The notes beneath the pieces are model-generated. The model worked only from the letters and a program-made list of their open reading frames with translations, did not search any database and was not told where the DNA came from. A stretch of 64,000 nucleotides of DNA from a bacterium (GTDB lineage: Bacteria > Armatimonadota > Fimbriimonadia > Fimbriimonadales > Fimbriimonadaceae), in assembly GCA_013823945.1 (NCBI GenBank), contig PNMZ01000007.1:62001-126000 (forward strand). The letters run 5' to 3'. The translations under genes and the position numbers were made by a program. Numbering within the stretch: the first letter of the stretch is position 1; the number at the start of each line of letters is the position of its first letter. This document shows positions 58,486 to 60,803 of the stretch, in pieces.

Positions 58486-59271
58486 ATGAAAAAGCAGCAA
58501 TTGATCGCAGTAACCGGCTTGGTCGCCGTCTTGGCCGCCTCAGCTAGTGCAACAACTTGGCACTTCGACTTAAAACCGCAGAATGGTGGTGGTCCGGGCT
58601 ATGGCTACAGTGCCACAGGTGGATCTGTGAAGCAGATTTCCAGTTCGTTCAACGATGTCACCGACCGATTGGCATTTGAAGCCACTTTTGGTAATTCCGC
58701 CGCTGGTACTTTGCCGGATGGTTACTGGCTTGTTTTGAACGACGGTCCCAACCCGAAAGGAACGAGTGATGAACTCGCGATTTTCTACTTTGATACGGGT
58801 GTGACGAACAACGGTCAAGCAAAGTTGACGGCTTACGGTTACAACGGTCAGAACGGCAATTCAAGCTATTTTGATGGATCCAATGCATCTGGTACTCAGG
58901 CACCGGACAAAATTGCGAGCAGTTTGACCACAAGCAACTTCGTGAATTCACTTTCCGTTGTGAATAACGCGAACGGAACCCGAACGATGAAGTTTGATAT
59001 CAATGCAGCGATCATCAACAATCACGATCCGAAATACGGTCCGGCGAGCAACTGGTTTGGAACTGGCTTTGACAACAAGGTTGGCATTTGGTTCCACCCG
59101 GTTGATGGTTTGGATGCTCAGTACGGCACCGATGGATTCTTGAAGAAGTTTGAATTCAGCAAGCAAGGCTGGGTTGATGGTCACAACTTGAATGCAGTTC
59201 CTGAACCGTTCACGATGGGTGCCTTGGGCTTGATGGCTTTGGCCGCTCGCCGAAAGAAGAAGAACGCTTAA
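58486..59271 (+). CDS. PEP-CTERM sorting-domain protein
   Basis: 261 residues. A signal peptide (KKQQLIAVTGLVAVLAASASA) precedes a 190-residue beta-rich, Gly/Asn/Ser-rich body. The C-terminus is the PEP-CTERM tripartite signal: VPEPFTMGALGLMALAARRK, that is the PEP motif, a hydrophobic helix and a basic cluster. Exosortase cleaves at this signal and passes the protein to the cell surface or exopolysaccharide. No exosortase is in the window. The RBS is AGGGAG, 12 bases before the ATG. A terminator follows. Confidence 0.95.
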   Translation: MKKQQLIAVTGLVAVLAASASATTWHFDLKPQNGGGPGYGYSATGGSVKQISSSFNDVTDRLAFEATFGNSAAGTLPDGYWLVLNDGPNPKGTSDELAIFYFDTGVTNNGQAKLTAYGYNGQNGNSSYFDGSNASGTQAPDKIASSLTTSNFVNSLSVVNNANGTRTMKFDINAAIINNHDPKYGPASNWFGTGFDNKVGIWFHPVDGLDAQYGTDGFLKKFEFSKQGWVDGHNLNAVPEPFTMGALGLMALAARRKKKNA

Positions 59272-59502: not shown

Positions 59503-60159
59503 TTAGAACCTGACTCCGATCATGTACGCCGGGCTTTTACCATTGATAAGGAAGAGACCAGTTGTGTATTGATCCCAGGAGTAGGTGACGAACGGATGGG
59601 TTTGGTGGCCTTCGTTTTGAAAGCCGAAAGTCCATCGATCTGGAGTTGTGTATTTTAACCCTACGAGTCCGTGAGCGTGATTTTCGTTGGAACGGAAACC
59701 GGCGCCCGAGTAGACATTCAGACTCGCCTCTCCGAGCGTCCAATTCTTCTCTGCGGTGACGCTGTAACCGGGGTTTCCGGTGCCGATGCCTTGGACACCC
59801 GCGGAAGCGTTGATTCCGGGAAATTTTGCTGATTCGGGAAGGATATTGATGCTCGCCAGCCAACGGAAGGAGTTTTGCTTATAGAGGTGGGCGACGCCGA
59901 GCGAAAGGCGCGGATTTGCTTGGTACCAGATAAACGTTTCTGCTTCTGTAATGGTGGTGGGTGCGATGACCGTGTTGATCATCCAGGTTGATGATTCCGC
60001 CGAACTGGCGGAGTATCCCCCGGCGACTCAGAGAGGGCAGCGGGCTTGACCGGTGCCTTGTTCTTGTTCCGGGAGTTTGGTTTCTGATTCAGAGTGGGCT
60101 TGGGCTGGGAGCCCGAAGGCTCCCAGCGCGAGCACCGCGAGGATGCTCTTGGTTGTCAT
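59503..60159 (-). pseudogene. exported barrel-like protein gene interrupted by one in-frame TGA
   Basis: Read from the ATG at 60159, 43 codons give a signal peptide (TTKSILAVLALGAFGLPAQA) and HSESETKLPEQEQGTGQARC-PL, then TGA (60028-60030). The same frame continues open for 174 codons, through the ATG at 59982, to a natural stop at 59503-59505. The second part is beta-rich and ends GKSPAYMIGVRF, a barrel-type C-terminus, but lacks its own signal peptide. This indicates one 218-codon gene. Either a nonsense mutation killed it, or the TGA is read as selenocysteine: context C-P-L-TGA and a hairpin of SECIS geometry follows. The ATG overlaps the stop of the Cys-rich peptide gene by four bases. 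Confidence 0.7.
59993..60017 (-). other. SECIS-like hairpin after the in-frame TGA
   Basis: On the minus strand, 15 bases after the TGA, TCCGCC/GGCGGA (60007-60012 with 59996-60001) form a stem with loop AGTTC; GAT/ATC (60015-60017 with 59993-59995) extend it across a two-base bulge. The distance from TGA to loop is 21 bases and the loop has G at position 2, within the limits described for bacterial SECIS elements. Such hairpins also arise by chance in GC-rich coding DNA. Confidence 0.35.
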
Positions 60160-60272
60160 TTGCAGGTGCAGTTTCCTTCTTGGTCGGCGCACTTGCAGCA
60201 GGTGCAAGGGTTGCATTGACAGTCAGGGCCGCAGGTGCAGCAGGGGCAACAGGTTTGTGTGTTTTCGTTCAT
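60156..60272 (-). CDS. 38-residue metallothionein-like Cys-rich peptide
   Basis: From ATG 60272 (AGGA eight bases upstream) the peptide has 13 Cys in 38 residues, at positions 8, 9, 11, 12, 14, 18, 20, 23, 25, 26, 28, 35 and 37. The patterns are CC-x-CC-x-C, C-x-C and C-x-CC-x-C. There are no aromatic residues and no signal peptide, so it should stay in the cytoplasm and bind Cu, Zn or Cd through thiolate clusters. It does not match the BmtA/SmtA zinc-finger metallothioneins or mycobacterial MymT that I know. It overlaps the following gene by ATGA and follows another Cys-rich secreted protein. Confidence 0.82.
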   Translation of the reverse strand: MNENTQTCCPCCTCGPDCQCNPCTCCKCADQEGNCTCK

Positions 60273-60332
60273 GTGTTCCTAATCGTGGTCATGGCTTCGG
60301 TTGGTTTTGAAGCGGATTGATTTGGGTGTTGA

Positions 60333-60692
60333 TTAGGATATTGGGGGGCCGCGAGGCGAGTGGCTGCGGTCGAGAACTTGGTGAGTGGTTAAGTCGGTTG
60401 ATGTGGGGTGTGGATCAGGTTGAAGGGATTGGGATGGGGTTTGGGTGGGGGATTTTTCGCTGGGGAGGGTGCCTTCCGGGGTGGGAAGGGTGACTTTTGT
60501 GTCGGCGGAGGGTGATTTTTCGGTCGCGCAGATGCAGGAGGGGGCTTGATCTTCGTGGGGGCATTGGCAGGCGGGGCCGCAGCAACAGGAGGAATTGGGT
60601 TGAAGGGGCTGGGCAAGGGTGGGGGCAACGACGGTGAGGATCGCGAGAGTGGCGGCGAATTTTTTTGCCAATTGGGCGAGGGGGTTATTCAC
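60333..60692 (-). CDS. exported Cys-rich protein
   Basis: 119 residues from a GTG start with AAGG six bases upstream. A signal peptide (KKFAATLAILTVVAPTLAQP) is followed by a compact Cys cluster SSCCCGPACQCPHEDQAPSC then IC, seven Cys within about 20 residues plus a His. The remaining 65 residues are Pro/Ser/Thr-rich and probably disordered, ending DRSHSPRGPPIS. It looks like a periplasmic metal-binding protein. It lies 60 bases upstream of the metallothionein-like gene on the same strand and probably shares its transcript. No family recognised. Confidence 0.72.
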   Translation of the reverse strand: MNNPLAQLAKKFAATLAILTVVAPTLAQPLQPNSSCCCGPACQCPHEDQAPSCICATEKSPSADTKVTLPTPEGTLPSEKSPTQTPSQSLQPDPHPTSTDLTTHQVLDRSHSPRGPPIS

Positions 60693-60751
60693 TTGCCTTG
60701 TGAGTAGTATAAATGATTTTTCAGTTTGGAAAGTTCGTGAGGCGTGAAAAG

Positions 60752-60785
60752 GCCCCGGAAGTTTGAAGTTTCCGGGGCTTTTTTG
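60752..60785 (-). terminator. terminator shared by pnp and the opposite strand
   Basis: 9-bp stem GCCCCGGAA/TTCCGGGGC (60752-60760 with 60770-60778), 19 bases after the pnp stop on the minus strand, where CTTTTC follows. The plus strand has a better T-run (six T), so it may stop transcripts from both sides. Confidence 0.8.
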
Positions 60786-60803
60786 TCTCCGGACTAGGAC
60801 AGC

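What the first reader, a model, noticed from the sequence alone, without database searches (positions are those of the whole stretch)
60156..60272. New-looking bacterial metallothionein: 13 Cys in 38 residues
The peptide has CC-x-CC-x-C, C-x-C and C-x-CC-x-C blocks and no signal peptide. It has a proper ribosome site and is coupled by ATGA to the next gene. It does not resemble SmtA/BmtA or MymT in size or spacing as I know them. Very short genes like this are often missed by annotation.
Basis: partly seen in the sequence, partly recalled or inferred. Interest (0 to 1): 0.72.

Follow-up and report, generated by a model that had tools for sequence, protein, structure and literature searches.

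The report
Metallothionein-like peptide coupled to new selenoprotein
The tiny cysteine-packed gene is real and very probably makes a new kind of bacterial metal-binding peptide, and the gene it overlaps turns out to encode a previously unlisted selenium-containing outer-membrane protein that ordinary annotation would cut off at its UGA codon.

Summary
Confirmed, with a strand correction and a larger result next door. The ORF lies on the minus strand (60272→60156): 38 aa, 13 Cys, no His or aromatic residue, AGGA ribosome site, ATGA overlap with the next gene. It is coding: all 13 Cys are kept in G006, and an equivalent 45-47 aa/15-Cys gene sits at the same place in three other congeners (G003, G005, G007). 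G003 and G005 differ by eight codons there, all synonymous. Neither Pfam nor NCBIfam matches it, although SmtA hits PF02069. It is best read as a new metallothionein-like family; metal binding is inferred. The coupled gene (60159→59503) has an in-frame TGA at codon 44 and is a selenoprotein (CPLU motif, predicted 12-strand outer-membrane barrel). 26 of 30 aligned homologs carry TGA there and four carry Cys. A covarying SECIS hairpin follows the TGA, and SelB plus tRNA-Sec are present in all eight Sec-form and none of eight Cys-form genomes in one test. It is absent from a 2026 inventory of 119 prokaryotic selenoprotein families. Cys-rich genes sit upstream of this barrel far more often than of other genes, so the unit looks like a thiolate/selenolate metal-handling operon. 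Copper is likeliest but unproven.

The parts
60156..60272 (-). Metallothionein-like gene, 38 aa, 13 Cys, cytosolic (no signal peptide)
60277..60280 (-). AGGA ribosome binding site of the metallothionein-like gene
   Evidence: sequence
60156..60159 (-). ATGA stop/start overlap joining the metallothionein-like gene to the selenoprotein gene
   Evidence: sequence; same in G006
59503..60159 (-). Selenoprotein gene, 218 residues read through TGA: N-terminal hydrophobic segment, CPLU motif, predicted 12-strand outer-membrane barrel
60028..60030 (-). In-frame TGA (Sec codon 44, motif CPLU)
59996..60012 (-). SECIS-like hairpin, columns 19-35 counted from the T of TGA, apical loop (A/G)GUUC
60333..60692 (-). 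Secreted Cys-rich protein, 119 aa (GTG start), CCCGPACQCP...CIC, C-terminal RGPP motif; a gene of this kind precedes the metallothionein-like gene in all five congeners that have it
60747..60786 (-). Terminator-like hairpin after pnp, separating the Cys-rich/selenoprotein unit from rpsO-pnp (coordinates approximate)
   Evidence: read by eye in the sequence; not scored with the terminator tool

Best explanation
Minus-strand 60692→59503 is a three-gene transcription unit for thiolate/selenolate metal handling. Gene 1 is a secreted Cys-rich protein. Gene 2, the finding, is a cytosolic metallothionein-like peptide that folds around metal ions, most likely Cu(I) or possibly Zn/Cd, through its 13 thiolates and so buffers them. 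Gene 3, translationally coupled by ATGA, is an outer-membrane beta-barrel selenoprotein whose CPxU motif is a redox or metal-binding site at the periplasmic mouth or in the lumen. Shown here: gene 2 is coding and under purifying selection; it is not PF02069; it follows gene 1 in five congeners; gene 3 is read through UGA by every sequence criterion (conserved TGA, Cys alternatives, covarying SECIS, matching SelB and tRNA-Sec, purifying selection after the TGA); Cys-rich genes precede barrels of this family far more often than other genes. Inferred: metal binding, which metal, outer-membrane location, a single transcript, and a shared role of the three genes.
For: Peptide: 13/13 Cys kept in G006; G003 vs G005: eight codon differences, all synonymous, flanking DNA about 89-91% identical; third type in G007. 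Coupling: sequence. Selenoprotein: TGA at one place across family and order; 21 CPLU, 5 UPxU, 4 CPxC of 30; hairpin 96% paired, 24 double-changed cells vs 5.7 in shuffles, 0/500; after the TGA 52.5 synonymous vs 32.5 non-synonymous differences, pN/pS 0.19; SelB over cut-off and tRNA-Sec in 8/8 Sec-form and 0/8 Cys-form genomes, also within genus g20; tRNA-Sec, anticodon TCA, in the window's genome. Barrel: (pLDDT 83.9; KdgM porin Z 17.2, 1.8 A over 148 residues). Cys-rich association: (8/19 vs 0/127 at 7 or more Cys in 30 aa, p 1.8e-8). Copper hints in some relatives: YtkA, double YHS and thioredoxin neighbours.
Against: The selenoprotein gene is absent next to the metallothionein-like gene in G003 (precise gap) and none was seen in the G007 stretch, so the peptide does not need it. 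In most other genera the upstream Cys-rich protein has a signal peptide, so cytosolic buffering is specific to this genus. The copper hints come from only a few relatives. No operator for a metal regulator was recognised upstream. More than half of the barrel loci have no Cys-rich gene by the stricter count.
Confidence: 0.72

Rival explanations
1. The Cys-rich ORF is a leader whose Cys codons sense Cys (or sulfur/selenium) supply and tune translation of the coupled selenoprotein, rather than a working metal-binding protein.
For: ATGA overlap and direct adjacency to the selenoprotein start in G000 and G006; very high Cys codon density.
Against: The 47-aa version is kept letter for letter in G003 although the selenoprotein gene is missing there. 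Non-Cys residues are conserved as well. In other genera the equivalent gene has a signal peptide and does not overlap the barrel.
Confidence: 0.08
2. The peptide is a disulfide-rich or zinc-ribbon-like structural or signalling peptide (redox buffer, Zn-binding accessory, precursor peptide) and not a metal buffer.
For: Cys-rich small proteins have many roles; secreted CC-rich relatives could form disulfides.
Against: CxC and CC clusters with no His or aromatic residue and no hydrophobic core are the metallothionein pattern (general knowledge); a cytosolic location does not favour disulfides; no modifying-enzyme gene was seen in the short transcription unit.
Confidence: 0.15
3. The downstream gene is a pseudogene or two genes split by a true TGA stop, so the coupling carries no meaning.
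For: The standard code gives a 43-residue product and a separate 159-aa ORF.
Against: The same TGA recurs in 26 of 30 homologs with Cys in the other four; strong purifying selection after it; covarying SECIS; SelB and tRNA-Sec co-occurrence 8/8 vs 0/8.
Confidence: 0.02
4. The ORF is a chance Cys-rich reading frame.
For: It is only 38 codons long.
Against: 13 Cys is far above Markov controls (maximum 8), and congeners show purifying selection.
Confidence: 0.01

Closest known systems
Prokaryotic metallothionein SmtA/BmtA family (Pfam PF02069)
   Same: Small, Cys-rich, cytosolic; presumed metal-thiolate buffer
   Different: No profile match; shorter (38 vs 54 aa in the SmtA control), more Cys, no His or aromatic residue; no divergent SmtB-type repressor seen next to it
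MymT, copper metallothionein of Mycobacterium tuberculosis
   Same: Small, originally unannotated Cys-rich ORF; copper buffer (described in PMC7558416)
   Different: Different size and Cys spacing as recalled; not compared by alignment here
Animal and fungal CxC-rich metallothioneins
   Same: CxC-dominated, no aromatic or His; the 47-aa congener peptide shows a weak, non-significant resemblance to a metallothionein domain in the PDB (1qjl, E 3.1)
   Different: No significant sequence match; bacterial operon
Bacterial selenoproteins with CxxU/UxxU motifs (119 families in PMC13188914, Table 1)
   Same: In-frame UGA, Cys-containing homologs, SECIS just downstream, CxxU or UxxU motif
   Different: No listed family is this small predicted beta-barrel with CPxU; the listed outer-membrane ones are an MtrB/PioB-type barrel and a TonB-dependent receptor
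KdgM/NanC small porins and the copper barrel PcoB (fold only)
   Same: Small outer-membrane barrel; KdgM Z 17.2, PcoB Z 11.1
   Different: Sequence identity 6-10%; a shared fold shows no function

Membership tests
Prokaryotic metallothionein (PF02069) | Match to the curated profile | tested here: not met
   No hit up to E 10; SmtA control 1.5e-20
Metallothioneins in the broad sense | Small size, about a third Cys, CC/CxC motifs, few or no aromatic residues | tested here: met
   38-47 aa, 32-34% Cys, no His or aromatic in all five congener sequences
Metallothioneins in the broad sense | Binds several d10 metal ions in thiolate clusters | not testable with these tools
   Needs purified peptide
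Metallothioneins in the broad sense | Metal-inducible expression | not testable with these tools
   No expression data; no known operator recognised upstream
MymT | Sequence homology to MymT | not tested
   No pairwise comparison was made; no Pfam or NCBIfam hit of any kind
Bacterial selenoproteins | In-frame UGA conserved, with Cys at the same column in other homologs | tested here: met
Bacterial selenoproteins | SECIS hairpin just downstream of the UGA | tested here: met
   lost in Cys forms
Bacterial selenoproteins | SelB and tRNA-Sec in the genome | tested here: met
Bacterial selenoproteins | Selenium present in the protein | not testable with these tools
   Needs 75Se labelling or mass spectrometry
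Selenoprotein families listed in PMC13188914 Table 1 | Match to a listed family by model or description | tested here: not met
   NCBIfam scan of 30 members gives only stray single-member hits; table read. Listed families without an NCBIfam model were checked by description only
KdgM-type small porins | Homology to KdgM | tested here: inconclusive
   Z 17.2 but 10% identity and no sequence match

The most novel reading that the evidence does not exclude
A previously undescribed envelope metal-handling system in which Cys-rich carriers (cytosolic or secreted) work with a selenocysteine-containing outer-membrane barrel, the CPxU/UPxU site taking metal or electrons from the thiolate peptides and the barrel passing or exporting the metal.
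Probability: 0.25. Interest if true: 0.88.

Novelty: new variant of a known kind. Interest (0 to 1): 0.74.

Why it matters
It adds a new bacterial metallothionein-like family outside PF02069. It also uncovers a selenoprotein family, plus a paralogous double-Sec family, in a phylum for which the held literature had almost nothing on selenoproteins (one paper naming both). Sec in small outer-membrane barrels is unusual and raises a testable question about selenolate chemistry at the cell surface. Practically, standard annotation would truncate or miss all of these genes.

Tried and rejected
Pfam, NCBIfam and PDB sequence searches with the peptide gave nothing. The barrel had only sub-threshold Pfam hits in single members (OMP_b-brl 0.077, PagL 0.02) and no PDB sequence hit. 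A genome-contig scan with the barrel alignment found only the two Cys-form records, because its pattern back-translates Cys and cannot see TGA; so spread outside Armatimonadota is untested. The window peptide and barrel have no match in plasmids and the barrel none in viral contigs. A shared operator upstream of the operon was sought in five congeners without result. The best weak hits of the peptide elsewhere (G074; the 47-aa version in G053 and G183) were judged composition matches: those loci show no comparable Cys-rich frame. The idea that the TGA marks a pseudogene was rejected.

Full report
WHAT IS THERE. The reported span is correct but the gene is on the minus strand: ATG at 60272, stop at 60158-60156. 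The product is MNENTQTCCPCCTCGPDCQCNPCTCCKCADQEGNCTCK, 13 Cys of 38, with no His or aromatic residue. AGGA precedes the ATG by four bases. The stop and the next start share ATGA. The frame is open for only 40 codons, so there is no hidden signal peptide. Second-order Markov copies of the window (30 x 64 kb) never exceeded 8 Cys per 38 aa.

IS IT CODING. In G006 (same genus) the peptide differs at three residues (P/A, T/A, Q/E), none a Cys, with four synonymous changes counted (pN/pS 0.16). G005 and G003 have, at the same place after a secreted Cys-rich gene, a 47-aa/15-Cys peptide; the two differ in eight codons, all synonymous, while flanking DNA is about 89-91% identical. G007 has a 45-aa/15-Cys peptide, again after a secreted Cys-rich gene ending in RGPP. 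The five align around C-T-C and several C-x-C motifs. G002 and G004 show no such gene after pnp, and the G001 contig ends there. So the gene is real and selected; the exact spacing is not fixed across the genus.

KNOWN FAMILY? No Pfam or NCBIfam match, although the SmtA control is found at 1.5e-20. The PDB sequence search gave nothing meaningful. The peptide therefore fails membership of PF02069, but has the general make-up of metallothioneins; that it works like one is inference.

THE NEIGHBOUR. The coupled gene begins MTTKSILAV... and meets TGA after ...ARCPL; the same frame then continues for 174 codons. Searching relatives with the read-through protein found the same in-frame TGA in genome after genome. 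In 30 aligned homologs the motif is CPLU (21), UPxU (5) or CPxC (4). A hairpin at +18 to +34 after the T of TGA, with loop (A/G)GUUC in most, is kept in 25 aligned Sec forms with strong covariation (96% paired; 24 double-changed cells vs 5.7 in shuffles; 0 of 500 shuffles). It is gone in Cys forms that keep the same amino acids there (GASS in L022), so protein constraint alone does not explain it. After the TGA, G000 and G006 differ by 52.5 synonymous and 32.5 non-synonymous changes (pN/pS 0.19). SelB (349.6 bits, cut-off 242) and tRNA-Sec (73.2 bits, anticodon TCA) are in the window's genome. Among 16 genomes compared in one test, both are in all eight with the Sec form and in none of the eight with the Cys form, including a split inside one genus, g20. 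This is a selenoprotein by every sequence criterion; selenium itself was not measured. The 119 families and subfamilies listed in PMC13188914 contain no such protein, and NCBIfam does not recognise it.

SHAPE. The AlphaFold2 model (pLDDT 83.9, 30-row alignment) has 12 strands after the motif, and is closest in fold to the KdgM porin (Z 17.2, 1.8 A over 148 residues), with other porins and the copper barrel PcoB lower. The CPLU motif lies in the less certain N-terminal part. The fold supports an outer-membrane place and says nothing about function.

CONTEXT. Upstream genes with 7 or more Cys in 30 aa precede 8 of 19 barrel loci but 0 of 127 other genes in the same regions (p 1.8e-8; relatedness of loci is not corrected for). 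Outside the genus most have signal peptides (L048, L052, L055, L095, L101). In a few relatives the neighbours are YtkA, double-YHS and thioredoxin-type proteins, pointing to copper or thiol chemistry. In G003 the barrel gene is cleanly absent between the metallothionein-like gene and the next gene, so the peptide can act alone.

MECHANISM. Most likely the peptide is an intracellular thiolate buffer for a soft metal, made together with a secreted Cys-rich protein and, in G000, G005 and G006, a selenolate/thiol site on an outer-membrane barrel. The steps from sequence to metal, and from barrel to transport or redox, are inferred.

VERDICT. The more surprising part is the coupled selenoprotein family and its double-Sec paralogs.

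Noticed in passing
Window genome G000 contig C1 about 871220-871841 (L092); also L104, L125-L144: A second, paralogous barrel family that looks TGA-free as a 177-aa ORF is really preceded by a signal peptide and, as a rule, PTUTGUPGEG, with two in-frame TGA codons (UxxU) and a covarying SECIS-like hairpin at the same offset. Found in all 20 loci fetched for this check plus G000 and G007.
   Followed up: partly
G000 contig C1:4210-4785 (L091): Third paralog in the window's genome, with the Cys form KVFCPVCVANGY, beside two Sec-form paralogs.
   Followed up: no
L109 vs L110 (G003 vs G005): The selenoprotein gene is precisely absent in G003 while the secreted Cys-rich gene and the metallothionein-like gene are kept: a natural presence/absence pair.
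   Followed up: partly
L017, L026, L027, L029, L031, L099, L105, L108: In these homologs the first Cys of CPxU is also a TGA (UPxU), so the family spans CPxC, CPxU and UPxU: a natural set for studying Sec/Cys exchange.
   Followed up: no
window 58486-59271 (+): Secreted protein ending ...AVPEPFTMGALGLMALAARRKKKNA, which looks like a PEP-CTERM-type sorting tail.
   Followed up: no
window 60333-60692 (-) and L044, L047, L055, L057, L121: Secreted Cys-rich proteins share a proline-rich C-terminal RGPP/RAPP motif; the two scanned had no Pfam match.
   Followed up: partly
selenoprotein C-terminal half, alignment A1 around NENHAH and GHQTHPF: Paired HxH and HxxH motifs tend to be present together or lost together in homologs, as a metal site might be (by eye).
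   Followed up: no
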